Below, piece after piece: positions 7,706 through 48,332 of a stretch of DNA of 64,000 nucleotides (within the stretch, counting starts at the first letter, position 1; each line of letters begins with the position of its first letter). The translations under genes were made by a program, and so were the position numbers. The stretch is from Draconibacterium mangrovi (GTDB lineage: Bacteria; Bacteroidota; Bacteroidia; Bacteroidales; Prolixibacteraceae): positions 806,001-870,000 of the forward strand of contig NZ_JAAAGB010000001.1 of assembly GCF_010586825.1 (NCBI RefSeq), given 5' to 3'. The notes under the pieces were generated by a model. It worked only from the letters and a program-made list of their open reading frames with translations, did not search any database and was not told the DNA's origin.

Positions 7706-7895
7706 GCCTCCGCACTTGAGAGTAATAAAATCCGGCGCCCCGGAAATTGTCCCGCAAACAAGAAAAACGAAATCCGGTGGCCCGGAAATACTGCCGCACT
7801 CAAGAAAAATGATTTCCAGCGCCCCGGAAATGTTCCCGCAGACAAGAGAAATGAAATCTGGTAGACCGGAAATACCGCCGCACATCCGAAATGAT
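7706..7895 (+). repeat. Array A: degenerate tandem repeat, exact 42-bp period
   Basis: Four full units start at 7728, 7770, 7812 and 7854, with half a unit before them (from 7706). Every unit is 42 bp. Each holds an inverted repeat TCCGG-nnnn-CCGGA (arms kept, one G-U type change in unit 4 and one mismatch in unit 3; loops CGCC, TGGC, CGCC, TAGA), then AAAT, then a CCGCA box, then a purine tract like CAAGAAAAA. Units differ by substitutions only, apart from a possible short tail of the last unit. An ORF of 14-residue repeats runs through it on each strand simply because 42 is divisible by 3; I do not think it is coding. The array fills the 454-bp gap between the convergent phospholipase-D-like gene and deoC; 7584-7705 shows nothing else. 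Confidence 0.9.
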
Positions 7896-7937
7896 TGTTC
7901 TTCGATAAAACAATAACGCTTAGCGGCCAGTAATCTC

Positions 7938-8651
7938 TTATCCTCCGAAACGCGATTTTGCTTCCTCAAGAATGGCAACGGTTGCAGTAGCTCCACAGCG
8001 TGAGCAACCGGCTTCACGCACAGCCAGCAAGGCATCGAGCGTACGCACTCCTCCGGCAGCTTTAATTTTTACGTTTGGACCGCTGCTATCGCGCATTAAC
8101 TTCAGGTTATCAATGGTAGCTCCCATGTACGAATAGCGTCCATCAGCACCTTTTACAAAACCAAACCCGGAGGACGTTTTTACGTAATCCGCACCAACTT
8201 TTGTGCAAATCTCACACAGTCTTCTAATGTCCAGTTCATTCGTAACGTAATCGGTTTCGAAAATAACTTTTACAATCGCCCCGTTTATATGACAGGTTTT
8301 TACAACTGTACCAATCTCAAGCTCAATATATTCCCAGTCGCCCTGCAAAGCTTTCCCTATATTTATAACCATATCAATCTCAACCGCACCATCCTTACAG
8401 GCTGTTTCCGCTTCAAAAGCCTTTACCTCAATGGCTGAATTTCCCGCCGGGAAACCAATCACACAACCGACCGCAACCTCCGCATCTTTTAAAAGCTGCC
8501 GGGCCTGTTTTACCGCATAAGGTTTTACACAAACCGATGCTACATTATACTTTGCCGCAACGGCACATTCCCGCTCTAAATCGTAATCTGTCATGGTAGG
8601 ATGAAGGATCGAATGATCGATCATTTTTGCAAGCTGCTGAACACTAGCCAT
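7938..8651 (-). CDS. deoC: DeoC, deoxyribose-phosphate aldolase
   Basis: Cleaves 2-deoxyribose 5-phosphate to glyceraldehyde 3-phosphate and acetaldehyde in deoxynucleoside catabolism. 237 residues, TIM barrel. The Schiff-base lysine is K158 in ADYVKTSSGFG and the second active-site lysine is K197 in KIKAAGGVRT. The N-terminal KMIDHSILHPTMT segment and CVIGFPAGN are also family hallmarks. Monocistronic on the minus strand; upstream is a divergent aldo/keto reductase, downstream a repeat array. Confidence 0.95.
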   Translation of the reverse strand: MASVQQLAKMIDHSILHPTMTDYDLERECAVAAKYNVASVCVKPYAVKQARQLLKDAEVAVGCVIGFPAGNSAIEVKAFEAETACKDGAVEIDMVINIGKALQGDWEYIELEIGTVVKTCHINGAIVKVIFETDYVTNELDIRRLCEICTKVGADYVKTSSGFGFVKGADGRYSYMGATIDNLKLMRDSSGPNVKIKAAGGVRTLDALLAVREAGCSRCGATATVAILEEAKSRFGG

Positions 8652-8767
8652 TTTAATTGGTTTTAAGTTATAGGGTAAATTTACAAAATATGCCGACTAC
8701 CTGTGACATATTTTAGTGAACCTTTTTCCAAATAATAAGTATTAAAACAGAAAAACCATAAAACTTA

Positions 8768-9781
8768 ATGACTATGACCAACAGAAGATCATTTTTGAAA
8801 TCGCTTGCCGGCGCAAGTGCCGGAATTAGTTTGGCTTCAGGCTCATTTGCTTCCGGTCAGGAAACGCGTGACAGATTGGGAGAAGTATTGCCAAAACGAA
8901 AATTAGGCAGAACCGGCGAACACGTTACCATGCTTGGCACCGGTGGCTACCACGTGGGCTGGACAACCGAACGCGATGCACAGGAAGTAATAGAAGCGTC
9001 TCTTGAGGGAGGTGTCCGTTTTTTCGATACTGCAGAAAGTTATTCAAGAGGAACCAGCGAAGAACGTTACGGGAAATACCTGACTCCAAAGTACCGCGAC
9101 TTTATTTTTCTGATGACAAAATCAACCGGCCGCGATGCCAAAACCGTGCAGGAACATTTGGAGGGCTCGTTACGAAGACTAAAAGTTGACCAGATTGACC
9201 TGTATCAGGTTCATGCCATTTCAACGCCCGGTGATGTTGACAACAGAATAAACAATGGTGTTTTAGACGTACTGTTAAAAGCAAAACAAGAGGGCAAAAT
9301 AAAATACCTTGGATTTACAGGCCACCAAAATCCCTATGCGCACACGCGAATGCTCGAACAAACAGAAGCAAGTGATATTTTCGACACCGTGTTAATGCCG
9401 GTTAACCTTCTTGATGCATCGTATTATAGTTTTATCGAAAACGTAATGCCAAAGGCATTGGATCGAAACATGGGAATTCTATCCATTAAATCGCTGGCCG
9501 ACGGAAGATTCTTTTCGAAAAAAGAAGAAGCCGACTGGACATCTGACGACCCGGTTATCCCGAACTATGTAAGCATAAAAGAAGCGATGCATTTTGTGTG
9601 GTCGTTACCTGTTTCAGTTTTGATATCGGGGAATGAGAACGCAACATACATGCGCGAAAAAATTGCACTGGCACGCTCATTCTCAAAATTATCGGAAGAC
9701 GAAAAACAAAATCTTATCGACAAAGTAAAACTTCTGGCAGAGTCTGGAGGAATTGAATATTACAAACGAAAAGAATCATAA
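8768..9781 (+). CDS. Tat-exported aldo/keto reductase
   Basis: 337 residues. The N-terminus MTMTNRRSFLKSLAGASAG has a twin-arginine motif (RRSFLK) and a short hydrophobic stretch, so the folded protein is probably exported to the periplasm. The AKR catalytic set is present: D87 and Y92 in FFDTAESY, K118 in MTKS, H149 in QVHAI. The family reduces carbonyls with NAD(P)H; the physiological substrate is not evident. Translation may start at 8768 or at the second ATG (8774). An imperfect terminator-like hairpin lies just after the stop. Confidence 0.85.
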   Translation: MTMTNRRSFLKSLAGASAGISLASGSFASGQETRDRLGEVLPKRKLGRTGEHVTMLGTGGYHVGWTTERDAQEVIEASLEGGVRFFDTAESYSRGTSEERYGKYLTPKYRDFIFLMTKSTGRDAKTVQEHLEGSLRRLKVDQIDLYQVHAISTPGDVDNRINNGVLDVLLKAKQEGKIKYLGFTGHQNPYAHTRMLEQTEASDIFDTVLMPVNLLDASYYSFIENVMPKALDRNMGILSIKSLADGRFFSKKEEADWTSDDPVIPNYVSIKEAMHFVWSLPVSVLISGNENATYMREKIALARSFSKLSEDEKQNLIDKVKLLAESGGIEYYKRKES

Positions 9782-9787
9782 AAGAAA

Positions 9788-9814
9788 AATCCCGGCGCCT
9801 CTGCTACCGGGATT
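9788..9814 (+). terminator. Hairpin after the aldo/keto reductase
   Basis: AATCCCGG (9788-9795) pairs with CCGGGATT (9807-9814) over an 11-nt loop. No T run follows, so termination is doubtful. The stem is the same as one at 42592-42621 (AATCCCGG and CCGGGATT). It leads into the odd leader sequence before the 25-codon ORF at 9842. Confidence 0.35.
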
Positions 9815-9841
9815 CAAACTAAACCTAACTAAACCAAACTT

Positions 9842-9919
9842 ATGAAAAAACAGCATATTGCTGTGAAGTATTTTGTATCTAATCTATTTTCTGAATACAA
9901 TAAATTATACTCAGTTTAA
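9842..9919 (+). CDS. Possible 25-residue peptide, perhaps a gene remnant
   Basis: A 25-codon frame, ATG at 9842 and TAA at 9917, begins MKKQHIAVKYF. It follows a stretch of low-complexity leader (9815-9841) made of AAACTAAACC-like repeats without G, and a hairpin. This looks like the 5' end of a larger gene (for example a TonB-dependent transporter, whose N-termini often begin MKK) cut short by a stop. Without homologues this is only a candidate; it could equally be chance. Confidence 0.2.
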   Translation: MKKQHIAVKYFVSNLFSEYNKLYSV

Positions 9920-9927
9920 TTGTTTTC

Positions 9928-10479
9928 ATGACGAAAAATAAAATACAAATACCGTGCCAAAAGCTAATTTCCGGAGGACAAACTGGTGTCGACCGCGCAG
10001 TTTTAGACGCTTGCCTGAACTATTCCTTTCCGTGTGGTGGCTGGTGCCCTAAAAACCGGAAAGCTGAAGACGGAAAAATAGCTGCAAAGTATCCGTTAAA
10101 TGAATTGCCCGAAGAAGACTATGCTGCCAGAACCCGAAAAAACGTCACCGAGTCTGACGGAACTTTAATAGTTGTTTCAGAAGATTTAAATGGAGGAACA
10201 CTGCTTACCCAACAGTTTGCCCAGGATCTAAAAAAACCTCTCCGCGTTGTTCGGCCTGATACAAATCCTTCGCACTTAATTCCGTGGCTTATTCTGAATA
10301 AAATAAACACGCTGAATGTTGCCGGTCCACGCGAAAGCGAGTGGGGTAACGCCTACCCTCAAACCTACCGGTTTATTACCGAACTTATTGTAAAAATTAA
10401 ATCATCGGCATCGGAGAGACTCCCCTTATTTATATCAAAAAATAAAATATCTTTGCGCAAAATAGAAGGAACCATTTAA
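9928..10479 (+). CDS. YpsA/SLOG-family putative molybdenum carrier protein
   Basis: 183 residues, cytoplasmic. The N-terminal LISGGQTGVDRAVLDACL (about 12-29) is the signature of the putative molybdenum-carrier family (Pfam PF12694), related to the SLOG Rossmann-like proteins. Further family traits are GGWCPKNRKAEDG and ESDGTLIV, then GGTLLTQ. Mo-cofactor carrier function is known only for distant relatives, so the actual ligand (a nucleotide or cofactor) is inferred. The last 25 residues are a divergent tail. The gene ends 25 bp before lepA, whose probable promoter lies inside it. Confidence 0.75.
   Translation: MTKNKIQIPCQKLISGGQTGVDRAVLDACLNYSFPCGGWCPKNRKAEDGKIAAKYPLNELPEEDYAARTRKNVTESDGTLIVVSEDLNGGTLLTQQFAQDLKKPLRVVRPDTNPSHLIPWLILNKINTLNVAGPRESEWGNAYPQTYRFITELIVKIKSSASERLPLFISKNKISLRKIEGTI
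10448..10455 (+). promoter_or_regulatory. -7 box (TATCTTTG) before lepA
   Basis: TATCTTTG matches TAnnTTTG exactly and lies within the end of the upstream gene. A start near 10460 would give lepA a leader of about 45 nt. No good -33 element is visible. Confidence 0.4.
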
Positions 10480-10504
10480 TTGAATGGTTGTTAAGAGGTA
10501 GTAA

Positions 10505-12292
10505 ATGGAGAAAATTAGAAACTTTTGCATCATTGCGCACATCGACCACGGAAAGAGTACGCTGGCTGACCGCCTACTGGAATTTACCAAGACGATTAGC
10601 GAACGCCAAATGCACGCCCAGGTACTCGATAGTATGGACCTGGAACAGGAACGTGGGATTACGATTAAAAGCCATGCTATACAAATGGATTATGTGCATG
10701 ATGGTGATCCTTATAAATTAAACCTGATTGATACTCCTGGACACGTGGATTTTTCGTACGAGGTTTCGAGATCAATTGCTGCATGCGAAGGAGCATTGCT
10801 AATTATCGACGCTACCCAGGGAATTCAGGCGCAAACTATCTCGAATTTGTACCTTGCCATTGAACACGACCTGGAAATTATTCCGGTACTGAATAAAATG
10901 GACCTCCCAAACGCCATGCCCGAAGTTGTTGAAGATCAGATTATCGATCTTATCGGTTGCGACCGTGAAGACATTATTCGCGCCAGCGGAAAAACCGGAG
11001 AAGGAGTTCAGGAAATTCTGAATCAAATTATATACAAAATACCACACCCGAAAGGCGATCCTAAAGCACCGTTGCAGGCACTTATATTCGATTCGGTTTT
11101 TAATTCGTTTCGTGGAATTATTGCCTATTTCAAAATTCAGAATGGTGAAATAAGGAAAAAAGACCTGGTGAAATTTGTGGCCACCGGCAAACAATACGAT
11201 GCCGACGAGGTGGGCGTACTAAAACTAAGTTTGCAGCCTCGTGATGTTTTAGGTCCCGGCGATGTTGGATACATTATTTCGGGTATTAAAACAGCGAAAG
11301 AGGTAAAAGTTGGTGATACAATTACTCACGTTGTCAACCCGTGCGACAAGGCCATTGAAGGTTTTGAAGAAGTAAAACCTATGGTTTTTGCCGGAGTTTA
11401 CCCAATTGACGCAGATGATTATGAAGATCTGCGTGCAGCAATGGATAAGCTGCAACTGAACGATGCATCTCTGACTTTCGAGCCGGAATCATCAGCAGCG
11501 CTGGGATTTGGATTCCGATGCGGTTTCCTTGGGCTTTTGCACATGGAGATTATCCAGGAACGACTGGAGCGCGAATTCGACATGAACGTTATTACAACAG
11601 TACCCAACGTTTCGTATAAAGCTCACCTTACCGATGGCAGTGAAATTATCGTATACAATCCTTCGGGAATGCCGGCTTCAACTACAGTTGACGAGATTGA
11701 GGAACCATACATACGTGCCAATATTATTACAGCATCGGAATTTATCGGGCCGGTAATGACCTTGTGTCTCGATAAACGCGGCGAACTGGTCAGCCAGAAT
11801 TACCTGACTGCCGAGCGTGCCGAACTGGTTTTTAATCTTCCGCTGGGAGAAATCGTTTTCGATTTTTACGATAAACTAAAAAGTATTTCAAAAGGTTATG
11901 CTTCGTTTGATTACCACATGAGTGGTTATAAACCGGCAAAACTGGTACGTTTGGACATTCTGCTGAACGGCGAAATGGTTGATGCCCTGTCGACATTAAT
12001 TCACTTCGACAATGCTTATGCTTTCGGACGCCGTATGTGTGAAAAGCTAAAAGAGCTGATTCCGAGACAACAGTTTGACATTGCCATTCAGGCAGCAATC
12101 GGTGCAAAAATTATTGCCCGCGAAACTGTAAAAGCTGTTCGAAAAGACGTAACAGCAAAATGTTATGGTGGTGATATTACGCGTAAACGAAAATTGCTGG
12201 AGAAACAGAAAAAAGGAAAGAAACGAATGAAACAAGTGGGTAACGTTGAAGTACCTCAAAAAGCTTTCCTTGCCGTCTTAAAACTGGATTAA
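10505..12292 (+). CDS. lepA: LepA, elongation factor 4
   Basis: Ribosome-bound translational GTPase that back-translocates or remodels stalled or assembling ribosomes. 595 residues, the usual length. G1 is AHIDHGKST (about 10-18), switch region [11 protein letters not shown]3 DTPGHVDF, G4 NKMD. The C-terminal domain typical of LepA ends in the block [17 protein letters not shown] (about 570-586) and AFLAVLKLD. Starts at the ATG at 10505. Ends at a terminator shared with rprY. Confidence 0.97.
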
Positions 12293-12309
12293 AAGAAATT
12301 CAAAATCAT

Positions 12310-12343
12310 AAAAAAGCCTGATAAAATTATCAGGCTTTTCTTT
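12310..12343. terminator. Bidirectional terminator between lepA and rprY
   Basis: AAAAGCCTGATAA (12312-12324) and TTATCAGGCTTTT (12327-12339) form a perfect stem (about 11-12 bp once a loop is allowed) with A and T runs on the two sides, so it serves both convergent genes. Confidence 0.85.
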
Positions 12344-12358
12344 TGCTACAGCGTGTTA

Positions 12359-13048
12359 TCAAACAATCAGTTTATAACCTTTTCCGTGTACATTTATTAT
12401 TTCAACGGTAGGTTCTTCTTTCAGGTGCTTACGCAGTTTGGTAATGTAAACATCCATACTGCGTGCATTAAAATAGTTATCGTCGATCCAAATCGATTTT
12501 AATGCATAATTACGTTCCAGCACCTTGTTGGCATTCTGGCAAAGTAATTTCAGCAAATCCGATTCTTTAGTAGTCAGTTTTACTATGTTCTCACCTTCAG
12601 AAAGGGTTTGCTTTCGTGTATCGAAAGTAAATTTACCCAATGTAAAAACCTGTTGTGCGCTGGCCTGTCCTTCCTGCGAAGTACGGCGTAAAATCGCCTC
12701 CAAACGCATAATCAGCTCTTCCATACTAAAAGGCTTGGTAATGTAATCGTCGGCTCCCAGCTGAAAACCTTCGAGCACATCGTCTTTCATGTTTTTCGCT
12801 GTCAGAAAAATTATCGGGATGTCGGCATTAATAATACGTATATCTTTTGCCAGTGTAAATCCGTCTTTTTTGGGCATCATCACATCCAACACACAAATGT
12901 CGAAATGCTCTTTCATAAATCCTTTGTAAGCTGCTTCTCCATCAGGATAAAGCTCTGCATCATATCCTTTTGCAACCAAATATTCTTTTAATAATAAGCC
13001 TAAATTCTCGTCGTCTTCTGCTAGTAATAATTTTGTTTTTTGTTCCAT
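12359..13048 (-). CDS. rprY: RprY-type response regulator (OmpR family)
   Basis: 229 residues. Receiver domain 1-120 with acidic pocket E11-D12-D13, phosphoacceptor D55 (CVLDVMMPKKDG) and K105-region KPFSMEEL; C-terminal winged helix (about 130-228) with TTKESDLLKLLCQNAN and a recognition region ARSMDVYITKLRKHL. The sequence closely follows what I recall of RprY of Bacteroides fragilis, where RprX/RprY act in tetracycline regulation and stress or redox-linked gene control. It lies 2 bp after rprX and is surely co-transcribed with it. Confidence 0.9.
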   Translation of the reverse strand: MEQKTKLLLAEDDENLGLLLKEYLVAKGYDAELYPDGEAAYKGFMKEHFDICVLDVMMPKKDGFTLAKDIRIINADIPIIFLTAKNMKDDVLEGFQLGADDYITKPFSMEELIMRLEAILRRTSQEGQASAQQVFTLGKFTFDTRKQTLSEGENIVKLTTKESDLLKLLCQNANKVLERNYALKSIWIDDNYFNARSMDVYITKLRKHLKEEPTVEIINVHGKGYKLIV

Positions 13049-13050
13049 GG

Positions 13051-14592
13051 TTAATTATTTATTTGTGGGAAATAAATTTTAAATTTCGTTCCTTTATTCA
13101 ATGCACTTTCTACTTTTATTGTGCCGTTGTGAAGGTCGATAATCTTCTTCACATAACTTAATCCCAGACCGAATCCTTTTACATCGTGAACATTACCCGT
13201 TGGGACCCTGTAAAAGCGATCAAAAATCTGCGCATGATGTTCTTTAGCAATTCCAATGCCATTATCCTGAACCGAAATAACAAGCTGATCTTTTCGGTTT
13301 TCTGTTCGCACCCAAATCTCAGGTACGTCTCGGCTGTACTTCATCGCATTGTCAAGCAAGTTAAAAATAACATTTGTAATATGCACCTCGTCACCTTTAA
13401 TAAGTGCATTATCTGCAAAAATTTCGGTATGAAGTGTTCCGTTTTTATTGTTAACCCGCAACTCGAAGTTAGCGGTTACAGTTTTTATCATTTTATTCGC
13501 GTCAAACTCCCTGAACTTTAACTTTAAACGGCCTTCATTAAAAACAGCCATCTGCAGCACTTTCTCCACCTGAAATCCCAAACGTTTACTTTCCTGGTTA
13601 ATTACGTTTGCAACGTGTTCAATTATCGACGGTGTATTGGCAACACTACCGTCCTGCAACATTTGACTGGCCAGCGAGATAGTTGAAATTGGTGTTTTCA
13701 GCTCGTGCGTCATGTTATTTATAAAGTCGTTTTTAATGTTCGACAACTTTTTCTGGCGCATAATAACCATTAAAGCATAAGCAAAAATGGCAATCAGCAG
13801 CCCGGTTAAAATAAATGTTGGAATGATGGTTAAACCGGTTTGTTTTACCAGGTATCTTCTTCTTTCAGGAAAATAAATATTTAGATAATTGGGTTTCGAC
13901 CCATTGTAATCGTTCTGAAATAGTAATTGCGGATATTCTTTCTTTTTACCGGGCTTATAATCTGCATCACCAAAAATTGTCCGGTCTTTTCCCAATGTTG
14001 AGTTTTTAATGGCGTATTTATAGTCCAGGTCGATTTCAGTTTGCGCCAGGGCATTGCGTAAAAACAATTCCAGCCTCGCCGAATCAATACGTTCTTCAAT
14101 GGGCCTGTCTTCCAAAAGTATTTCGTAGTTTTTCCAGTTCGAATCACGTATCCATTGTTGTCGCCTGCGTTCCTGCTCAAAACTTTCCTCCAGAAAGCGT
14201 TGCATCTGCGAAATAGCACTCACTTTTACCGAATCGGCCACTTCTGCTTTATACTTCTCTTCCATTTGACCGTAAACGCCACCCTGCGAATAACTGAGCT
14301 GAAAACTTACCGTTGCCTGCGACAGGCTATTTCGCGGAAAAACGTTACTAAACTCGCTCGGATTGCTCTTTTGCCCCGGAACTATTCCCCGACTTGCATA
14401 CTCGCGTGCCAGTCGCTGTTCATCTAAATCCAGCTGAACCGCAACCATATCTAATGCATTAGCCACTAGCTGATTAAACTGCTCCTCCCTGATATCAGAT
14501 GCCGACTTGATCATCGATCCCTGCACCAATATCAAACCCGACAGCACAACCGCCATCAACACAATTAATGTTATTAGCATTTTACGACTCAT
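13051..14592 (-). CDS. rprX: RprX-type sensor histidine kinase
   Basis: 513 residues. TM1 at about 5-24, a 230-residue periplasmic region rich in charged residues, TM2 at about 255-277. HisKA H-box NNMTHELKTPIS with H296; N-box NLLDNAMKYS; G1 VQDNGIGI; G2 GFGLGLSYV. It partners the adjacent RprY regulator. A -7 box ends only 4 nt before its ATG, so the mRNA may be almost leaderless. Confidence 0.9.
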   Translation of the reverse strand: MSRKMLITLIVLMAVVLSGLILVQGSMIKSASDIREEQFNQLVANALDMVAVQLDLDEQRLAREYASRGIVPGQKSNPSEFSNVFPRNSLSQATVSFQLSYSQGGVYGQMEEKYKAEVADSVKVSAISQMQRFLEESFEQERRRQQWIRDSNWKNYEILLEDRPIEERIDSARLELFLRNALAQTEIDLDYKYAIKNSTLGKDRTIFGDADYKPGKKKEYPQLLFQNDYNGSKPNYLNIYFPERRRYLVKQTGLTIIPTFILTGLLIAIFAYALMVIMRQKKLSNIKNDFINNMTHELKTPISTISLASQMLQDGSVANTPSIIEHVANVINQESKRLGFQVEKVLQMAVFNEGRLKLKFREFDANKMIKTVTANFELRVNNKNGTLHTEIFADNALIKGDEVHITNVIFNLLDNAMKYSRDVPEIWVRTENRKDQLVISVQDNGIGIAKEHHAQIFDRFYRVPTGNVHDVKGFGLGLSYVKKIIDLHNGTIKVESALNKGTKFKIYFPQINN

Positions 14593-18473: not shown

Positions 18474-18507
18474 CCTCGTACTTACCTGATCGTTTTAATA
18501 GCCTTAA

Positions 18508-18815
18508 AAATGGCGGATTATGGATTATCTACCGCCAGAATAGCCCGTGCAATTCTGCGAGAAGAAAATCAACCGCCGGTTTTGGTTGTACATTTTTGTA
18601 AGACTGAAAAAAACTGTCAGAGTCGTCCGCGCAATTTTGCATGAAGAAAATCTGCCGCCAGGAAAAGCCTCGCAATTCTGCACAAAGAAAATCAACTGTC
18701 AGTTTTGGCCACCCATTTTTGCGGGAAGAAAAAAAATCATCAGAATTGTTCGTGCATTTTTGCGAGACGAAAATCTGTCGTCAGGATGAGCCGTGCAACT
18801 CTGCGACAATATCAA
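18508..18815 (+). repeat. Array B: degenerate tandem repeat, exact 41-bp period
   Basis: Seven GCAATT-like boxes begin at 18549, 18590, 18631, 18672, 18713, 18754 and 18795, each exactly 41 bp apart. A partial unit precedes them: the CCGCC(A/G)G box at 18532 is 41 bp before that at 18573. Unit plan: short inverted repeat GCA-nnnn-TGC, purine tract like GAAGAAAATC, then a CCGCCAG/CTGTCAG box and a variable end. In the unit at 18590 the arms read ACA...TGT, a paired change that keeps base pairing. Units differ widely but show no indels. Since 41 is not a multiple of 3 the array cannot be a coding repeat. It fills the 398-bp gap between the convergent LAB_N and ExbB-like genes. Confidence 0.92.
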
Positions 18816-18845
18816 AAAAAGCAGGTCTCCCGAAGGAAGCCTGCT
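18814..18845 (-). terminator. Terminator of the ExbB-like gene
   Basis: Read on the minus strand, AGCAGG...CCTGCT closes around an inner TCC-TTCG-GGA (UUCG tetraloop) and is followed by seven T. Good intrinsic terminator directly after the minus-strand gene and at the edge of array B. Confidence 0.85.
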
Positions 18846-18871
18846 CTAATACTTAAACTGAATTACCTTGT

Positions 18872-30291: not shown

Positions 30292-30311
30292 CCAAAGTCG
30301 AATAAAAAAAA

Positions 30312-30516
30312 GGAGCATCGTACTGAGTACGATTAAAGAATAACACATGCGTGAAGCATCGTACTGAGTACGTTTGAAGAAAACTACGAGGGTGAAGCAT
30401 CGTACTTAGTACGTTTGAAGAAAAACGCGTGGGTGGAGCATCGTACTCAGTACGTTTGAAAAAAACTGCGTTGGGGAAGGATCGTACTGAATACGTTTGA
30501 CGAAGAATAACGATAC
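30312..30516 (+). repeat. Array C: degenerate tandem repeat, exact 41-bp period
   Basis: Five units start at 30312, 30353, 30394, 30435 and 30476, all 41 bp. Each has the inverted repeat CGTAC-nnn-GTACG (loops TGA, TGA, TTA, TCA, TGA; one arm mismatch in unit 5), preceded by G(A/G)AGCAT and followed by TTTGAAGAAAA. The last 10 bases vary between units. This is the best conserved of the five arrays. It fills most of the 389-bp gap between convergent genes, and the fatty-acid synthetase terminator lies at 30602-30638. Not codon-periodic. Confidence 0.95.
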
Positions 30517-30601
30517 GGAGAATAAAGTGTATTAATAATATAAAAGGCTCCCTGTTCAATTGCCATTTCAAAGTTTGTAATTTTGGAAATGTTTAGCCAA
30601 T

Positions 30602-30638
30602 AAAAAAGGCTGCAAGAGATAAACTCCTGCAACCTTTT
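30602..30638 (-). terminator. Terminator of the acyl-CoA synthetase gene
   Basis: On the minus strand, AAAAGGTTGCAGGAG pairs with TCTCTTGCAGCCTTTT (with G-U pairs), followed by a T run. Located 43 bp after the stop. Confidence 0.75.
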
Positions 30639-30680
30639 AAGCTTGGTTCAGCTTGTGCTTTCGCACCTGTTTTTTTACCG

Positions 30681-35737: not shown

Positions 35738-36021
35738 CTGTATTTTTTCAATTTAGTTTCAAGTCTTTTTATAATATCAATTGGTATAACCATTTCCTTA
35801 CAAAATAGTTGCTGAAAATAATCCTTATTTAGAACAATTCAAAAAAAAGAGCCGAAACAAAAACCCCTTTGGTATTTTTTTAGCAGATTATGGGAACCGA
35901 ACGAAGCAGCAAGATTTTGCCTCGTTCTCTTATTACATAGAACCCGGATCACAAATAACAAAATGACAGAAAACGGGCGAATATCATCCTTTCTACACTA
36001 CAAAACATTCGTCCTACACAT

Positions 36022-36210
36022 GCAGGACAAGACAAATGTAACGTAGGAGATGAAATTTCCGGTGTAGGACGACTTTTTAATGATGTAGGAGCGGTTCTAT
36101 TCGGTGTAGGAAGACAACTTTTAATCGTAGGAGACCATTTTGCGAATGTAGGACGGCCATTTAGGGTCGGAGGAAACCCTTTTTTAACCTGCGGACAAGC
36201 CAACAGGAAA
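36022..36210 (+). repeat. Array D: degenerate tandem repeat, 21-bp box spacing (42-bp unit)
   Basis: Nine boxes of the form GTAGGA (variants GCAGGA, GGAGGA, TGCGGA) start at 36022, 36043, 36064, 36085, 36106, 36127, 36148, 36169 and 36190, exactly 21 bp apart. Pairs of boxes are more alike at 42 bp: the units at 36043 and 36085 share CGGTGTAGGA and GAC...TTTAAT. So the true unit may be 42 bp with two halves. An inverted GTCCT...AGGAC (36011-36028) opens the array. The 583-bp gap between ccsBA and alaS (both minus strand) also holds an alaS terminator at 36214-36250; 35738-36000 shows only AT-rich sequence and a weak GAACGA...TCGTTC repeat (35899-35927). Confidence 0.9.
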
Positions 36211-41713: not shown

Positions 41714-42490
41714 ATGAATGCACCATATTCAAGGCAAGAAGACAAAGACATTTCAGTAGAAGAGAAATTACGCGCATTGCATGAGTTGCAGAGTGTTGTA
41801 TCTGAAGTTGATAAAATAAAAACCCTAAGGGGTGAACTTCCTTTGGAAGTTCAGGACCTGGAAGACGAAATTGCCGGTTTAAAAACCAGGTTAGTAAACC
41901 TTGATGACGAGGTTAAAAATCTGGATACTTCAATCAACAACAAAAAAATTGCGATTAAAGATTCGCAAGCGTTGATTGTAAAATATACCGAACAGCAAAA
42001 CAACGTTCGCAACAACCGCGAATTCGACTCGCTTTCGAAAGAAATTGAATTCCAAAACCTGGAAATCGAACTTTCGGAAAAACGAATTAAAGAGTTCACG
42101 GTAGAAATGGCTCAGAAAAAAGAAGCCATTACAGCATCGAAAGAACAGTTGAAAGAGCGTGAAGAAGATCTGGATAGAAAGAAAAACGAACTTTCTGAAA
42201 TTACTGAAGAAACCAAGATCGAAGAAGAAAAGCTGAGAGCGAAATCAGAAAAGATCGAGTCGTTTATCGAGCCTCGTCTGTTGGGAGCTTTTAAGCGTAT
42301 TCGTAAAAATGCACGCAACGGTTTGGCCGTAGTTACTATTCAGCGTGATGCTTGTGGTGGTTGCTTTAACAAAATTCCACCTCAGAGACAGTTGGATATC
42401 GCCAGCCGCAAAAAAATTATTGTTTGCGAATATTGCGGTCGTATTTTGGTTGACCAGAATATTAACGTAGTTGAAGATATTGCTGAATAA
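41714..42490 (+). CDS. Coiled-coil protein with C4 zinc ribbon
   Basis: 258 residues. A long antiparallel coiled-coil (about 15-190; heptads rich in E, K, L) and a C-terminal C4 ribbon: C216-x-x-C219 (CGGCFNKIPPQ) and CEYCGRI (about 239-242). The family is known from HP0958-type structures, which bind RNA or the flagellar export machinery in epsilonproteobacteria; here it follows a Nif3-like gene, an arrangement frequent in Bacteroidota. The ribbon likely binds nucleic acid. Confidence 0.88.
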   Translation: MNAPYSRQEDKDISVEEKLRALHELQSVVSEVDKIKTLRGELPLEVQDLEDEIAGLKTRLVNLDDEVKNLDTSINNKKIAIKDSQALIVKYTEQQNNVRNNREFDSLSKEIEFQNLEIELSEKRIKEFTVEMAQKKEAITASKEQLKEREEDLDRKKNELSEITEETKIEEEKLRAKSEKIESFIEPRLLGAFKRIRKNARNGLAVVTIQRDACGGCFNKIPPQRQLDIASRKKIIVCEYCGRILVDQNINVVEDIAE

Positions 42491-42510
42491 GCATTAAGAT
42501 ATTGATTAAA

Positions 42511-42550
42511 AAATAGCCGGTTCAAGATTTTTGAACCGGCTATTTTTTTG
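42511..42550 (+). terminator. Terminator of the Nif3/zinc-ribbon operon
   Basis: Perfect 15-bp stem AAATAGCCGGTTCAA (42511-42525) and TTGAACCGGCTATTT (42531-42545) followed by a T run. Confidence 0.88.
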
Positions 42551-42589
42551 TAGGACGTATTTAAAAGGAATACTTAATATTTCGTCCAT

Positions 42590-42701
42590 AAAAAAATCCC
42601 GGCGTCCACTCCGGGATTTTTTCTTCATTGCATCTATGCTTCTTTTGATTGACTCTGTTATTAAGAGTTTGTATAAAACGGGTTTGTATGTTACAAATAT
42701 A
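42590..42701 (-). ncRNA. Candidate small RNA: -7 box to terminator on the minus strand
   Basis: In the 437-bp gap 42491-42927, the minus strand has an exact -7 box TATATTTG (42701-42694) and, about 70 bp further, a perfect 11-bp hairpin AAAAATCCCGG/CCGGGATTTTT (42592-42621) with a T run on both sides. A transcript of about 95-100 nt would be made. No -33 box is evident, and the hairpin could alternatively be a second terminator for the plus-strand operon. The remaining gap (42702-42850) has nothing I can name. Confidence 0.25.
42592..42623. terminator. Second hairpin, bidirectional
   Basis: AAAAATCCCGG (42592-42602) and CCGGGATTTTT (42611-42621) with T runs on both strands. The same GATCCCGG/CCGGGAT-type stem occurs at 9788. 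Confidence 0.6.
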
Positions 42702-42850
42702 GCTGATACGATTGTGCCCCGGCATTATTTTTTGCCTAATCAAAGTCGACAAAAGCAGTATTTATGCATGATGATTTTCGAAACTGGCAACACATGCATA
42801 CTTAAAACCGGGGTTATAAATGCCTAACACCGACTACCAAAATCCTTAAA

Positions 42851-42880
42851 AGAAAAAAGCCGCTCCTCCAGAAACGACTT
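42851..42880 (-). terminator. Terminator of the LemA-TPM operon
   Basis: On the minus strand AAGTCGTTT pairs with GAGCGGCTT using several G-U pairs, followed by six T. It lies about 50 bp after the TPM gene stop (42928). Confidence 0.6.
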
Positions 42881-42927
42881 CATCAAATTTGAACATTGTT
42901 GTTTATGTAACGAAAAATGAATTTCTT

Positions 42928-43719
42928 TTACCAGCTTCCACCGGCGCCTCCGCCGCCAAAGCTTCCGCCACCAAAACCACCGAAGCCTCCGCCTCCGAAA
43001 CTTCCGCTTCCCGACGAAAAGTTTCCAAACGAGCCTGACGAACGATGACTACCCGACATCATTCCCATGGCTAACCAGAATGGCAAACTTCTGCCCGGTG
43101 AATAGAACCGTCCTCGCCGGCGTCTTCCGAATAAGGCTATCAGCAAAATAAAAAAGATGATCCCAAAAGGAATTCCGGCACTGCCGCCGGCGTTTACCTT
43201 TTCCTGGTAATTTTCTGCGGTATATTCGCCACGGGTGATATCCATAATTACGTTTAGTCCTGCTGCTAAACCACCGTAATAATCATTCTCCTTAAAGCGG
43301 GGAATCATTTCCTCGTTAACGATTGTGGTATTCAAAACAGCATCGGGCAACACGCCTTCCAGCCCGTAGCCGGTTGCAATAAACACCTGCCCCCTGCTGT
43401 TACCAACTTTGGGTTTTACCAAAACCACCAAACCATTATCATTGCCTTTCTGACCAACTCCCCAGTTTTCGCCCAATCGTTGTGCATAATCCGCACGATC
43501 ATATCCTTCAAGGTCAGGAACAGTTACCACAACTATTTGTGTCGAGGTTTTTCGGGCAAACTGTGCCAAGGCATTTTCCATGTTTTGCTTTTCGCCATCG
43601 CTTAAAATATTGGCAAAATCGTTTACCAAACGTGCCGGTTGCGGACGTTCGGGTATTTGTGCCAAAACACTTGTGGCGCTTAGGATAACTGCAAATAGTA
43701 ATATTATTGTTTGTTTCAT
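42928..43719 (-). CDS. TPM-domain membrane protein (YgcG-like)
   Basis: 263 residues. Signal peptide (1-20, cleavage after VLAQ), TPM domain (about 30-160) with LVNDFANILSDGEKQNME and QIVVVTVPDLEGYD, one membrane helix (about 186-203), then a low-complexity tail rich in G, S, F (FGGGGFGGFGGG). TPM proteins such as YgcG have a phosphatase-like fold; a role in membrane protein quality control is known from plant and cyanobacterial relatives. Upstream are a second TPM gene and lemA on the same strand, a linked group in many bacteria. Confidence 0.88.
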   Translation of the reverse strand: MKQTIILLFAVILSATSVLAQIPERPQPARLVNDFANILSDGEKQNMENALAQFARKTSTQIVVVTVPDLEGYDRADYAQRLGENWGVGQKGNDNGLVVLVKPKVGNSRGQVFIATGYGLEGVLPDAVLNTTIVNEEMIPRFKENDYYGGLAAGLNVIMDITRGEYTAENYQEKVNAGGSAGIPFGIIFFILLIALFGRRRRGRFYSPGRSLPFWLAMGMMSGSHRSSGSFGNFSSGSGSFGGGGFGGFGGGSFGGGGAGGSW

Positions 43720-43792
43720 AATTTTCTAAATTTAACCCCTCTGCCATCCACCCGCTTTCCGTACAAGGGGAGAAAAAGCGGAACAGTGATTT

Positions 43793-44230
43793 TTATTTTC
43801 CAAACGAAATCTCGTCTGATAATTCATTCACATCATCATCCTGATAAGGGAAATGTGTTTTTAATTGTTCGCCTGCCATAATAATTCCATCGGCCAGAGC
43901 TTCGGCGTACTTACCCTCTTTTAATTTGGCAATAACCACTTCTTTGGTACTTTCCCAGAAATCGTCGGCCACTTTTTGGTTTATTCCTCCATCACCCAAA
44001 ATGGCAAACTTTTTATCCTCTACTGCCAGGTAAAAAAGAACGCCGTTGCGTAATTCTGTTTTGTGCATTTCCAACTTCTCGAAAAGGTAAGCGGCACGAT
44101 CCAACACATCGCCTTTACAGTGATTTTCTATGTGTACCCTTATCTCTCCAGAGGTATTGGTTTCAGCCACGCGAATGGCATTGGTAATTTGCAGTTTTCC
44201 TGCTTCGCTAAAATATTTTTGAACTCCCAT
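43793..44230 (-). CDS. Second TPM-domain protein
   Basis: 145 residues without signal peptide or membrane helix. N-terminal YFSEAGKLQITNAIRVAETNTSGEIRVHIE matches the TPM core, then DRAAYLFEKLEMHKTELRNGVLFYLA and VAIKKFAILGDGGINQKV-like AEDKKFAILGDGGI. It is shorter than the first copy and may stay in the cytoplasm, possibly attached to its neighbours. Gap of 73 bp to the downstream TPM gene and about 110 bp from lemA. Confidence 0.85.
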   Translation of the reverse strand: MGVQKYFSEAGKLQITNAIRVAETNTSGEIRVHIENHCKGDVLDRAAYLFEKLEMHKTELRNGVLFYLAVEDKKFAILGDGGINQKVADDFWESTKEVVIAKLKEGKYAEALADGIIMAGEQLKTHFPYQDDDVNELSDEISFGK

Positions 44231-44341
44231 AATTTCGTTTCCTTTTTGTAATTACCGCATTTGAAAAGGATGCTATCTCCTTCACTTGCGAGCTGCTGAA
44301 TCCGTCAGCTGACGGTCAACATGTCGTTCTTCGCAAAACTA

Positions 44342-44920
44342 TTAAAACTGTACTTCAGGAGCTTGTTCTGCACCTTGCTGCGCTTCGAAATAGGTTTTCT
44401 TTTCGAAACCAAACCAACCGGCATAAATTACCCTTGGAAATTTCCGGATATAGGCGTTGTACGATTGTGTGGTTTGATTGAATTTACGACGTTCCACCGC
44501 AATTCGGTTTTCCGTGCCTTCGAGCTGCGCCTGCAACTCCATAAAATTCTGGTTGGCTTTTAAATCCGGATAACGTTCAACAACTACCATTAACTTACTT
44601 AAAGCAGAAGAAAGTCCTTCCTGCGCCTGGTTAAATTGTTGAAGCGACTGTGCATTTAATTTTGTTGGATCGATATTCACCGAAGTAGCTTTCGAGCGTG
44701 CCTCAATAACGCCTGTCAGCGTTTCCTGCTCGTGCTCGGCATAACCTTTTACGGTATTTACAAGGTTCGGGATCAGATCGGCACGACGCTGGTATACGTT
44801 TTCAACCTGCGCCCACGAAGCAGTTACCTGCTCATCCATTTCCACCATTTTGTTGTAACCACAACTCGAAAATAAAACTACACTTACTAACGCTATTAAT
44901 ACAATTCTAAATCTTTTCAT
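44342..44920 (-). CDS. lemA: LemA-family lipoprotein
   Basis: 192 residues. Lipoprotein-like signal MKRFRIVLIALVSVVLFSSC (Cys20). LemA core: QVENVYQRRADLIPNLVNTVKGYAEHEQ (cited in part), LSSALSKLMVVVERYPDLKANQNF, and an amphipathic C-terminal YNAYIRKFPRV. LemA forms helical bundles at the membrane and is regularly encoded with TPM proteins as here. The exact activity is unknown. Confidence 0.9.
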   Translation of the reverse strand: MKRFRIVLIALVSVVLFSSCGYNKMVEMDEQVTASWAQVENVYQRRADLIPNLVNTVKGYAEHEQETLTGVIEARSKATSVNIDPTKLNAQSLQQFNQAQEGLSSALSKLMVVVERYPDLKANQNFMELQAQLEGTENRIAVERRKFNQTTQSYNAYIRKFPRVIYAGWFGFEKKTYFEAQQGAEQAPEVQF

Positions 44921-45065
44921 CTATTCAATTATTATTTGTTTTCCCTTTTACGTATACAATAACTGCAAATATTTTCAAAAGGTGTGAAATATCAGAAGTA
45001 AATTCGGGGAAAGGCGATAATTTGCCGTTGTATTTCGAAATATTTAAGATTAAAGCAGAGGCACC

Positions 45066-47066
45066 ATGAATTTAGCAGATTTTAAAACAGCCATTCTACA
45101 AGGGATACCGGACAAACTTCCATTACCGAAAGCCTATGAAACCGAGATTAACCATGCCCCCAAAAGAAAGGACATATTATCGGCGAATGAAAAAAAGCTG
45201 GCGTTAAAAAATGCCTTGCGCTACTTCCCTGCAAAATTTCATAAGGTGCTTGCTCCTGAGTTTTTGAACGAACTGGAAACATACGGGCGTATTTATATGT
45301 ACCGTTTTCGTCCCGACTATAAAATGTATGCACGCCCCATTGATGAATACCCGGCCAAATCGAAACCGGCAGCATCAATTATGCTGATGATACAAAACAA
45401 CCTGGATTACGCCGTGGCACAACATCCGCACGAACTGATCACTTACGGAGGAAATGGTGCGGTTTTTCAAAACTGGGCGCAGTATCTGCTTACTATGAAA
45501 TACCTGGCCGAAATGACCGACGAACAAACACTGGTGATGTATTCCGGTCACCCGATGGGCTTATTCCCGTCCCACAAAAATGCACCGCGCGTTGTGGTTA
45601 CCAACGGCATGGTAATTCCTAACTATTCCGGCCGCGACGATTACGAACGTATGAATGCTCTTGGCGTATCGCAATACGGACAAATGACTGCCGGATCGTA
45701 CATGTATATCGGTCCGCAAGGCATTGTGCATGGCACCACAATTACCGTTATGAATGCTGCACGCCTGCACTCACCGGGCGATTTTGGCGGAAAAATATTT
45801 GTAACCAGCGGACTGGGAGGCATGTCGGGAGCACAACCAAAAGCAACTGTAATTGCCGGAATGGTTTGTATTGTTGCCGAAGTGAATCCGAAAGCGGTGG
45901 AAGTTCGCCACAGCCAGGGTTGGGTGGATGAAGTTTATACCGACCTGAACGAATTAATCGCCCGTGCACTAAAAGCCCGAAAAAACAAAGAAGCCGTTTC
46001 AATCGCATACCAGGGTAACATTGTTGATTTGTGGGAAAAGCTGGCTGAAGAAAATATTCCGGTAGAACTGGGATCGGATCAAACATCGTTGCATAATCCG
46101 TTTGCAGGAGGTTATTACCCGGCCGGACTGAGCTTTGAGGAATCGAATAAAATGATGGCCGAAAATCCGGAACAGTTTCAAGAAGAAGTTTATAAAACCC
46201 TGCGCCGACATGTAGCTGCAGTGAATAAACTGACTAAAAACGGCATGTATTTCTGGGATTACGGCAATGCCTTTTTGCTGGAAGCCAGTAGAGCCGGTGC
46301 CGATGTTACAAAAATCGATGGCGAATTTAAATACCCATCGTACGTTCAGGATATTATGGGACCACTGTTTTTTGATTATGGTTTTGGCCCTTTCCGCTGG
46401 GTGTGTACTTCGGGAAAAGCAGAGGATTTGGAAACTACGGATAAAATTGCAGCAGAAGTTTTAACTGAAATCGCTGCCACTGCTCCAGATGAAATAACCG
46501 GACAAATGAAAGACAATATTCACTGGATAAAAGAAGCCGGGAAAAACAAATTGGTGGTAGGTTCGCAAGCGCGGATTTTATATGCCGATTGTAACGGCCG
46601 CACAAAAATTGCCAAAGCCTTTAACGATGCTATTGCCGACGGACGCATCTCTGCACCCATTGTTCTGGGGCGCGATCATCACGATGTTTCTGGTACTGAT
46701 TCGCCGTACCGCGAAACTTCAAATATATACGATGGCTCATCGTTTACAGCCGATATGGCGGTGCAGAATTTTGTTGGCGACGGTTTCCGTGGCGCTACAT
46801 GGATTTCGTTACACAACGGTGGTGGTGTTGGCTGGGGAGAAGTTATAAACGGTGGCTTTGGAATGACCATCGATGGATCGCCCGAAGCCGAAGAACGTCT
46901 GAAAATGATGTTGCACTGGGATGTAAACAACGGCATCTCGCGCCGCAGCTGGGCTCGAAACAAACCGGCACGTTTTGCTATTGAGCAGGCGATGAAAGAT
47001 AATCCTGAGTTGAAAGTTACACTACCAAATGAAGCCGATGATGCTTTGCTGGATCAGCTTTTTTAA
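45066..47066 (+). CDS. hutU: Urocanate hydratase (long form)
   Basis: Hydrates urocanate to imidazolonepropionate in histidine breakdown. 666 residues, about 110 longer than the usual 555-residue enzyme, a form I associate with Bacteroidota. The NAD-binding core shows TYGGNGAVFQNWAQY (about 124-138), GLGGMSGAQPKA (about 256-267) and the cofactor region VGSQARILYADCNGR. Other hut genes are not in the window. The start is the ATG at 45066 after an A-rich leader. I see no terminator; a DUF3667 gene follows 63 bp later. Confidence 0.92.
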   Translation: MNLADFKTAILQGIPDKLPLPKAYETEINHAPKRKDILSANEKKLALKNALRYFPAKFHKVLAPEFLNELETYGRIYMYRFRPDYKMYARPIDEYPAKSKPAASIMLMIQNNLDYAVAQHPHELITYGGNGAVFQNWAQYLLTMKYLAEMTDEQTLVMYSGHPMGLFPSHKNAPRVVVTNGMVIPNYSGRDDYERMNALGVSQYGQMTAGSYMYIGPQGIVHGTTITVMNAARLHSPGDFGGKIFVTSGLGGMSGAQPKATVIAGMVCIVAEVNPKAVEVRHSQGWVDEVYTDLNELIARALKARKNKEAVSIAYQGNIVDLWEKLAEENIPVELGSDQTSLHNPFAGGYYPAGLSFEESNKMMAENPEQFQEEVYKTLRRHVAAVNKLTKNGMYFWDYGNAFLLEASRAGADVTKIDGEFKYPSYVQDIMGPLFFDYGFGPFRWVCTSGKAEDLETTDKIAAEVLTEIAATAPDEITGQMKDNIHWIKEAGKNKLVVGSQARILYADCNGRTKIAKAFNDAIADGRISAPIVLGRDHHDVSGTDSPYRETSNIYDGSSFTADMAVQNFVGDGFRGATWISLHNGGGVGWGEVINGGFGMTIDGSPEAEERLKMMLHWDVNNGISRRSWARNKPARFAIEQAMKDNPELKVTLPNEADDALLDQLF

Positions 47067-47129
47067 AAATCCTTTTTTCTGATTCGCGCAAAATGATTTA
47101 TCTTACAGCATATTAAGGATAAATCTAAA

Positions 47130-47909
47130 ATGCCCGATCTACCAAAACCCAACCAATGCCCGGCCTGCCAATCTTCGGCTATTGACAATTATTGCAGCAA
47201 TTGCGGGCAAAAGATCTACAACAAACGTTTTACACTAAAAGGCTTTCTGTCTGTAGTTGGTGTTGCGTTGAACCTGGAGAGAGGATTTTTTTTCACCCTG
47301 ATTTGGATGTTCCGAAACCCGGGAAAAGTTATCGACGATTACCTTAACGGACGAACCAAACCATACTTAAATCCACTCAATTACCTTCTTATCATTTTTG
47401 GGATTTACGCATTTATGATACTTTCGTTTAACATATACGACAGTAGTATCGAAACGACAAGTCACTTTCTGGGCACCGACCAAAGAAGCACATCTCCTGA
47501 AACTCTGGAATTTCAAAAGCGCTATATGGAGTTGGCAAGGAAATACATTAATCTGATCCCTTTAATAATGATTCCTCTTGCCAGCCTATTTTCGAAATGG
47601 TATTACCGTAGAAAGCAACTTTATTATGGCGAGCATCTAATAATTAATACATTTATTTTTGCACAAATTTTTGCTGTCTCAATAATTTTATCCGTCATAA
47701 TGATAGCTGCACCTCGTTTACTGGCTATCTACCCTCTGCTTTCAGCAGGTTTAAGTGCCTCATATTTTACATACTCCTATTACCGCTATTTTGGCAAATC
47801 AGTATTTAACGCCTTTTTGGGAGCGATGGTAATGTATTTGGGCGGGTTTATTCTGCTATTGCTAATATTCACTATCGTTTTAGCAATTTGGTTACAAGTA
47901 AGGTCGTAA
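47130..47909 (+). CDS. DUF3667 membrane protein with N-terminal zinc ribbon
   Basis: 259 residues. Residues 8-30 form a C4 zinc ribbon (CPACQSSAIDNYCSNCG). Then FTLKGFLSVVGVALNLERGFFFTL, NPGKVIDDYLNGRTKPYLNPLNYLLI, typical of DUF3667, and five membrane helices to the C-terminus. Function unknown; proteins of this type are common in Bacteroidota and often linked to membrane stress or lipid genes. It may be in one transcript with hutU. Followed by array E. Confidence 0.85.
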   Translation: MPDLPKPNQCPACQSSAIDNYCSNCGQKIYNKRFTLKGFLSVVGVALNLERGFFFTLIWMFRNPGKVIDDYLNGRTKPYLNPLNYLLIIFGIYAFMILSFNIYDSSIETTSHFLGTDQRSTSPETLEFQKRYMELARKYINLIPLIMIPLASLFSKWYYRRKQLYYGEHLIINTFIFAQIFAVSIILSVIMIAAPRLLAIYPLLSAGLSASYFTYSYYRYFGKSVFNAFLGAMVMYLGGFILLLLIFTIVLAIWLQVRS

Positions 47910-48045
47910 CCGAAGCAAATCCTTTTAGAGCTACATGTTAAAATCTTCCGAATCAACCTTCTCATCTGAACTGAAAATAATAACATAATTGTAGAGATGA
48001 GTTTATCAATGCCGCAGAACACAAGTCAACTAACAATTTGTTAGA

Positions 48046-48332
48046 CTTATTGCCGAGGGCACCGACACCAAAAATTATTTCGGCAGGCTTTTGCCCGCGG
48101 CAAAGGAAAGAAAAACTCGTTAGGCAAGCTTCTGCCATTGACAAAGGGTTCACTAAATACTTTTTATAGCTTTTGCCCGTGGCAATGGCATCGCTACCGG
48201 GTTTTTGAAGCTTTTGCCGCTGACAATGGTTTCAAAAAATGTTTCAGCATCGTTTTGCCACCGGCAACGCCATCAAAAATTATTTTTGGAAGGGTTTGTC
48301 CGCGTGCAAAGCGTGAACAACAGTAAATTGCG
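48046..48332 (+). repeat. Array E: degenerate tandem repeat, exact 41-bp period
   Basis: Seven units start at 48046, 48087, 48128, 48169, 48210, 48251 and 48292, each 41 bp from the next; a weak copy of the box may lie at 48005. Each holds an inverted repeat TTGCC-nnn-GGCAA, with most bases of the arms kept and the 3-nt loop changing (GAG, CGC, ATT, CGT, GCT, ACC, CGC). GCTTTTG stands before the stem; some units have an A-rich or purine tract after it. Units differ by substitution, not indels. Not a multiple of 3, so not coding. It fills the 456-bp gap between convergent genes. Confidence 0.93.

What the first reader, a model, noticed from the sequence alone, without database searches (positions are those of the whole stretch)
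7706..48332. Five private intergenic arrays share one architecture: exact 41/42-bp period and, in four, a short stem
Seen directly: arrays at 7706-7895, 18508-18815, 30312-30516, 36022-36210 and 48046-48332 have periods 42, 41, 41, 21/42 and 41 bp. They share no sequence, yet four share the plan short inverted repeat (3-5 bp arms, 2-4 nt loop) - GA-rich tract - variable part, all with the purine-rich part on the plus strand. Within an array the bases diverge but unit length does not, the reverse of decaying minisatellites, which gain indels. 41-42 bp is about four turns of B-DNA, so each stem would face the same side. Four of the five lie between convergent genes; the fifth lies after alaS and before ccsBA. 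Of the window's six gaps over 300 bp, only 42491-42927 has no array. Inference: selection on spacing, e.g. by a repeat-binding protein, a chromosome-organising element, a transcription buffer between convergent genes, or a family of structured RNAs. I know of no named element that fits.
Basis: partly seen in the sequence, partly recalled or inferred. Interest (0 to 1): 0.9.

Follow-up and report, generated by a model that had tools for sequence, protein, structure and literature searches.

The report
Evenly spaced palindrome arrays between genes
Gaps between genes in this bacterium hold a scattered family of short repeat arrays whose sequence changes while the spacing stays near two or four turns of the DNA helix, which suggests that something in the cell reads spacing and symmetry.

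Summary
The observation largely holds. All five arrays are real (0 comparable windows in shuffled sequence). In 1.0 Mb of the same genome outside the window, 21 of 304 gaps are self-similar (control 1); 10 of these stand on a 21/41/42-bp ladder, 6 of the 10 in convergent gaps against 41 of 304 gaps (p=0.0006). Two claims fail. The arrays are not private: families recur at 1-3 loci per genome and in sister species. Nor are they all unrelated: two families share a linker (20 of 22 bases) but have different palindromes. Unit number varies (2 to about 44), while off-length units are roughly 5-10 times rarer than flanking indels predict. At the alaS locus most motif copies differ together between species. 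The two RAYT genes inspected in this genome carry other hairpins. Best reading: a dispersed Bacteroidales array element acting as helically phased DNA sites, most simply for a protein. No binding protein, transcript or function was shown. The convergent bias was not seen in the two sister genomes sampled, and five of 23 longer-unit arrays show no significant palindrome.

The parts
7706..7895 (.). Array A1: 42-bp units, palindrome CCGG-N4-CCGG, 4 full units in register from 7724; convergent gap 7484-7937 between a T9SS-sorted phospholipase-D-like gene and deoC
   Evidence: longer version at the same place in G005, partial match in a gap with other flanks in G004, gap of 49-56 bp without array in G002, G006, G008, G012, G013
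18508..18815 (.). Array A2: 41-bp units (123-bp higher order), 7 units in register; convergent gap 18474-18871; no significant within-unit dyad
   Evidence: by eye one unit-like stretch at the same place in G006, none in G002 and G012, other sequence in G008 and G013; same family reversed at C11:636440
30312..30516 (.). Array A3: five 41-bp units; family palindrome ATCGTACTNAGTACGAT and linker close to TGAAGAAAACTGCGTTGGTGGAGC; convergent gap 30292-30680
35990..36017 (-). Head of A4: two inverted motif copies (35990-35996 and 36011-36017) 21 bp apart
   Evidence: read
36022..36210 (+). Array A4: GTAGGA motif every 21 bp with divergent 15-bp spacers; first spacer AAGACAAATGTAA conserved; last two units carry GGAGGA and TGCGGA versions
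48046..48332 (.). Array A5: seven 41-bp units, palindrome TTTTGCC-N3-GGCAA in the consensus; convergent gap 47910-48365; A3-family array at this place in G006

Best explanation
The five arrays belong to a dispersed, multi-family intergenic array element of this Bacteroidales genus. Class I has 41/42-bp units, most with a palindrome of 12-20 bp plus a linker. Class II has a 6-8 bp motif repeated directly every 21 bp behind a head of inverted copies. I infer that they work as double-stranded DNA: many copies of one site held on the same face of the helix (two or four turns apart), bound cooperatively by a protein or protein family that reads site and spacing, giving a nucleoprotein block or anchor placed mostly where no promoter is disturbed, between convergent genes. 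Copy number changes by whole units. The site can be replaced through an array while linker or head stays, as expected if it follows a changing partner. Shown: dispersal, copy-number change, deficit of off-length units, retained dyad in most class I arrays, site replacement, convergent bias in this genome. Inferred: protein binding, and the block or anchor role.
For: Ladder: 10 of 21 self-similar gaps outside the window, and no best lag at 32-41 or 43-56. Off-length steps as listed: A3 family 2 of 44; F646 family 8 of 37 (all in L304 and L306, which are one place fetched twice: 4 if counted once); GGGAGAAC family 6 of 69; A4 across 8 species 5 of 55; 17-21 in all against about 108-173 expected from 1714 substitutions between in-register neighbours at 0.063-0.101 indels per substitution in array-free gaps (sums mine). 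Within-unit dyad in 18 of 23 arrays of 23-42 bp at 6 or fewer of 200 shuffles, not in the two 21-bp arrays (arrays picked by hand, several of one family). Same linker with exchanged palindrome: C22 against C11:646858, linker 20 of 22, and 6 of 8 stem pairs changed on both sides in a register set by hand; C11:339791 against C11:876740, z 11.2. Head spacer AAGACAAATGTAA behind both GTAGGAC and GGGAGAAC. At the alaS place, of 14 genus genomes looked at, 8 have the array: GTAGGA in G000, G002, G005, G012, G048; TGCGGA in G013, G032; GTCGGA in G008; G046 has a remnant; G003, G006, G009, G044, G047 have none. A3 palindrome: all 14 exact matches in G000 lie in three arrays. Convergent gaps outside the window: 6 of 41 against 4 of 263 other gaps, p=0.0006.
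Against: No binding protein or cognate gene was found; none was sought by experiment. Lack of solitary exact copies is unlike an ordinary autoregulated DNA-binding protein. Stem mismatches lean to G-T over A-C in one orientation, 12 to 3 (p=0.035, copies not independent), with 38 other mismatches; the lean would fit RNA. Convergent bias not seen in G006 (1 of 5) or G009 (0 of 1); A3-family arrays also sit in tandem and divergent gaps. Five of 23 longer-unit arrays show no significant dyad. Relatives in other families show 22-23 bp as well as 21 and 41/42, and G000 itself has a 22-bp array not counted on the ladder (C11:796290). G009 has one ladder array in 400 kb, so dense arrays are not needed in the genus. 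The column-based pair count on alignment A1 did not show the expected excess of both-side changes per pair (3 pairs, 340 of 500 shuffles reach it), because the two families lie one column apart in that alignment.
Confidence: 0.4

Rival explanations
1. RNA hairpin arrays: transcripts running into the gap carry a string of hairpins that act as 3'-end stabilisers, attenuators of convergent read-through, or sponges; selection is on base pairing, so palindromes drift by paired changes.
For: Palindrome identity changes while pairing stays; in-array paired change AATAAC/GTTATT to AATACC/GGTATT in a Parabacteroides MAG array (read by eye); G-T over A-C 12 to 3; convergent location in this genome.
Against: Near-exact 41/42 and 21 steps and few off-length units have no obvious reason in RNA with single-stranded linkers; class II units have no stem of their own; arrays in divergent gaps; no Rfam match in the window at gathering scores.
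Confidence: 0.2
2. Selfish palindromic repeats comparable to REP/BIME elements, spread by an enzyme (possibly a RAYT, possibly another) and tolerated in promoter-free gaps; no host function.
For: Dispersed families at 1-3 loci per genome; presence/absence between close relatives; bias to convergent gaps; spacers of the GGGAGAAC element recur in order at different loci, by eye; in two of 19 RAYT neighbourhoods (L241, L245) a 21/42-bp array lies in the gap beside the RAYT gene.
Against: The RAYT flanks printed also carry a different hairpin next to the gene in G000 (two genes) and G003; ladder arrays in 3 of 19 neighbourhoods, 181 kb (L203, L241, L245), are close to the background of about 10 per Mb, without a formal test; no solitary exact copies of the A3 palindrome; no target duplication was recognised by eye at A1 or A3.
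Confidence: 0.2
3. Neutral minisatellites: palindromes copied arm to arm by template switching, units multiplied by slippage and unequal exchange, surviving in promoter-free gaps.
For: Whole-unit copy-number change: A3 has 5, 6 and 6 units in G000, G002 and G006, family F646 runs from 2 to about 44 detectable units; template switching can keep arms matched without selection (general knowledge, recalled).
Against: Deficit of off-length units of about 5-10 fold; the same 21 and 41/42 lengths in families that do not align and in other genera; class II motif nearly constant while spacers diverge.
Confidence: 0.2

Closest known systems
REP / BIME elements with RAYT (TnpA-REP), including Bacteroidetes subclass 2.6
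   Same: Short intergenic palindromes, tandem groups, downstream and convergent location (PMC3733652, passages seen; PMC6006769, passages and section 25 seen)
   Different: No solitary exact copies of the A3 palindrome, no GTAG/CGTC foot seen by eye on the palindromes, fixed 41/42-bp step, few loci per family; the RAYT genes inspected carry another hairpin
F-plasmid centromere parS-F (sopC): twelve 43-bp tandem repeats with ten 16-bp inverted repeats bound by ParB (PMC6238139, passages seen)
   Same: Tandem array, about four helical turns per unit, a palindrome per unit
   Different: Several arrays with different palindromes on one chromosome; partition genes beside them were not searched for
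Iteron arrays of plasmid origins (recalled, no call)
   Same: Direct copies about 21-22 bp apart with inverted copies nearby, as in class II
   Different: Chromosomal intergenic, several loci; replication genes beside them were not searched for
Bacterial minisatellites / VNTR
   Same: Whole-unit copy-number change between close relatives
   Different: Off-length units depleted, shared period across families

Membership tests
REP/BIME with RAYT | palindromic unit of 20-40 bp in intergenic DNA | tested here: met
   18 of 23 arrays with longer units have a significant dyad; class II units do not
REP/BIME with RAYT | solitary copies and doublets besides arrays, high copy number | tested here: not met
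   A3 palindrome: 14 exact matches in G000, all in 3 arrays; degenerate solitary copies were not searched genome-wide
REP/BIME with RAYT | cognate RAYT flanked by the same palindrome | tested here: inconclusive
   Two G000 RAYT genes are flanked by GGCGCGGATTTGYAATCCGTGCC-type hairpins instead; but in 2 of 19 neighbourhoods (L241, L245) an array lies in the adjacent gap
ParB-bound centromere (sopC type) | tandem units of about 43 bp each with one inverted repeat | tested here: met
   architecture only, class I, units 41/42
ParB-bound centromere (sopC type) | cognate parAB genes and ParB binding | not tested
   no search for par genes was made; binding needs experiment
CRISPR array | near-identical repeats of 24-48 bp separated by unrelated spacers, cas genes | tested here: not met
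   class I units are contiguous; class II spacers recur by position at different loci and species, by eye, so they look inherited; cas genes not searched
Neutral minisatellite | unit length drifts by indels as units diverge | tested here: not met
   about 5-10 fold fewer off-length steps than expected; copies not independent and steps more than 3 off not counted
Known structured RNA | match to an Rfam model | tested here: not met
   0 matches in the window at gathering scores

The most novel reading that the evidence does not exclude
A chromosome-wide set of addressable, helically phased DNA platforms whose address (palindrome or short motif) is replaced through an array while linker and head are kept, because it co-evolves with a fast-changing trans-acting factor: a bacterial counterpart of centromere-protein or PRDM9-type turnover.
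Probability: 0.15. Interest if true: 0.9.

Novelty: new variant of a known kind. Interest (0 to 1): 0.62.

Why it matters
Bacterial intergenic repeats are mostly described either as high-copy transposon-like palindromes or as plain minisatellites. Here repeat arrays of unrelated-looking sequence share one locked spacing, and related families exchange the palindrome but keep the linker. If a protein reads the spacing, this gives a handle on chromosome organisation or insulation between convergent genes in Bacteroidales.

Tried and rejected
RAYT/REP origin: PF01797, 19 neighbourhoods of RAYT-type matches, flanks of four of them; not supported, not excluded. Known RNA family: none in the window. 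Coding repeats: 42 and 21 are multiples of three, 41 is not, so coding is rejected as a common cause. Two of the 21 self-similar gaps were dropped from the ladder: C11:729037 (lag 42), which translates as an open lysine- and alanine-rich protein tail, and C11:973620 (lag 21), a heptamer repeat by eye. FopS small RNAs of Bacteroides (PMC11697453, passages seen): terminator-type sRNAs of about 65-70 nt, no array structure in what I saw. Viral collection: 7 contigs with one ATCGTACTNAGTACGAT each, not followed further. Plasmids: no match to A3. Column-based pair count on alignment A1 was uninformative because the two families differ by one column; the hand register was used, and it was chosen with the palindromes in view. 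A first G-T/A-C tally (21 to 11, p=0.11) contained chance matches and was replaced by a stricter one (12 to 3). In one search array A5 is binned as heptamer because a 14-bp repeat lies in the same gap, and L147 is binned 41/42 although its best lag is 22. Pieces C3, C22, C10, C21 and two C11 pieces were chosen for a motif or a transposase gene; they are in the figures but not in the count. A looser binning gave 11 of 50 convergent against 8 of 326 other gaps in G000. Literature searches gave no paper on such arrays in the listings seen; the library lacks most subscription papers.
Full report
Setting. The window is C11:806001-870000 of an unnamed 5.9-Mb genome. Genomes G001-G018 and G031-G048 are members of the same genus.

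The observation. Tandem Repeats Finder reports A1, A2 and A3. A lag scan finds all five, and nothing in block-shuffled sequence. Printed in register, A1 to A5 have steps of 42, 41 (with a 123-bp higher order), 41, 21 and 41. Four gaps are convergent; A4 lies downstream of alaS and before a gene with a CcsB-like part.

Genome-wide test. In 1.0 Mb of C11 outside the window there are 304 gaps of at least 120 bp by a simple gene call; 21 reach 44 of 80 matches at some lag of 10-150, against 1 in Markov-resampled controls. The best lag is 42 in seven, 84 in two, 123 in one and 62 in one (a 21-bp array); none is at 32-41 or 43-56. After dropping one coding tail (lag 42, convergent) and one heptamer repeat (lag 21), 10 of 21 stand on the 21/41/42 ladder; a 22-bp array is not counted. 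Six of these ten are in convergent gaps, which are 41 of the 304 (p=0.0006). With all sampled G000 DNA, window and chosen pieces included, the figures are 9 of 50 convergent and 8 of 326 other gaps (p=7e-5), and for gaps of at least 250 bp 8 of 37 against 8 of 157 (p=0.003). Against this, G006 has 5 ladder arrays in 400 kb, 1 convergent, and G009 has 1, not convergent. In 80 loci of other Bacteroidota (289 gaps), 22 gaps are self-similar (control 5); 9 are on periods of 21-23 or 41/42, 4 of 9 convergent (p=0.055). In 250 kb of E. coli K-12 (71 gaps) 2 gaps score, neither on the ladder.

Families. The A3 palindrome CGTACTNAGTACG has 14 exact matches in G000, all in three arrays at multiples of 41 bp; 9 each in G002, G005 and G006, also in arrays; none in 15 other genomes, and the reversed control is 0 in all 19. 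TTTGGGARTACTCCCAAA with up to one mismatch occurs in three G000 arrays (C4, C11:646959, C11:960821; 9, 7 and 5 matches) and in a run from C1:2444111 to 2445934 in G006, about 44 sites at 42-bp steps (its listing was cut short). GGGAGAAC repeated at 21 bp occurs in 9 of 37 genomes. A1 is present at the same place in G005, matches in part in a gap with other flanks in G004, and is absent, with a 49-56 bp gap, in G002, G006, G008, G012 and G013. A3 has 5, 6 and 6 units in G000, G002 and G006 and is absent in G008, G012 and G013. At the A5 place G006 carries an A3-family array.

Relations between families. Of 231 pairs of consensus units, 23 align at z above 4; several are one family in two places. 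The informative ones are C22 (A3 family) with C11:646858, and C11:339791 with C11:876740: the linker aligns and the palindrome does not. For the first pair the 22-base linker is 20 of 22 identical, and 6 of 8 stem pairs differ on both sides in a register set by hand (alignment). One palindrome has an odd centre and the other an even one, which may account for 41 against 42 here. In class II the head keeps the spacer AAGACAAATGTAA, CGGAWAAATGTAW or a close variant, and later spacers recur by position at different loci, by eye, while the motif is GGGAGAAC in one family and GTAGGA, GTCGGA or TGCGGA at the alaS place. I looked at that place in 14 genus genomes: 8 have the array, G046 a remnant, 5 none. 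In G000 the last two A4 units carry GGAGGA and TGCGGA, close to the versions of other species.

Spacing. Between consecutive motif copies, 42 of 44 steps are 41 in the A3 family; 62 of 69 are 21 and one is 42 in the GGGAGAAC family; 50 of 55 are 21 or 42 at the alaS place over eight species; 29 of 37 are 42 in F646, where L304 and L306 (one place fetched twice) with 41- and 40-bp steps account for the other eight. Neighbouring in-register units differ by 1714 substitutions in all (my sum). Array-free gaps show 0.063-0.101 indels per substitution, predicting roughly 108-173 indels; 17-21 off-length steps are seen. Steps more than 3 bases off were not counted and shared history is counted more than once, so five- to tenfold is a rough figure.

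Symmetry. A within-unit dyad is reached by at most 6 of 200 column shuffles in 18 of 23 arrays with units of 23-42 bp, and in neither of two 21-bp arrays. A2, C11:208986, C11:1420302, the G004 array and the G009 array fail. The arrays were picked by hand and some are of one family. Stem mismatches, oriented by the linker, are 12 G-T, 3 A-C and 38 other, which leans to RNA but is weak because copies are related.

Known kinds. REP/BIME is the nearest dispersed element. Two RAYT-type genes of G000 have the NHLH and YIHQNP motifs listed for Bacteroidetes subclass 2.6 in PMC6006769 (passages and section 25 seen), and their flanks carry a GGCGCGGATTT-AATCCGTGCC hairpin, not an array palindrome. Ladder arrays occur in 3 of 19 such neighbourhoods (181 kb), near background without a formal test, but in two of them in the gap beside the gene, so a link is not excluded. 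The closest architecture is parS-F (sopC), twelve 43-bp repeats with 16-bp inverted repeats (PMC6238139, passages seen). The searches made listed no paper on these arrays.

Judgement. The feature is real, dispersed and constrained in length; its role is inferred. I favour phased DNA sites for a cooperative protein (0.4) over RNA hairpins, a selfish repeat, or neutral minisatellites (0.2 each).

Noticed in passing
48707-48772: A 14-bp tandem repeat (ATGCTGGATACTAG) beside A5; heptamer- and octamer-type repeats are a separate common class, with many lag-14 and lag-16 gaps in G006.
   Followed up: partly
L203:9300-10900 (C11:1417886-1418417) and L202:9862-10393: RAYT-like genes of Bacteroidetes subclass 2.6 type flanked by GCTGGCGCGGATTTGYAATCCGTGCC hairpins, apparently their REP; the G003 copy (L241) shows the same plan with another stem.
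   Followed up: partly
G012 alaS-ccsBA gap (in L067; printed): About 1.6 kb that looks like an insertion sequence with short inverted ends lies at the distal end of the A4 array; its genes were not searched.
   Followed up: no
7538-7581: What looks like a long bidirectional terminator (AAAGTCCGGGGCTG...CAGCCCCGGACTTT) sits between the upstream gene and array A1; relatives without A1 have other, shorter sequence there.
   Followed up: no
G006:C1:42352-42821 (sample): A class II array that runs as direct CCCTGTT copies, turns at CCTGTTCAACAGGG and continues as inverted copies, at steps near 20-21 bp.
   Followed up: no
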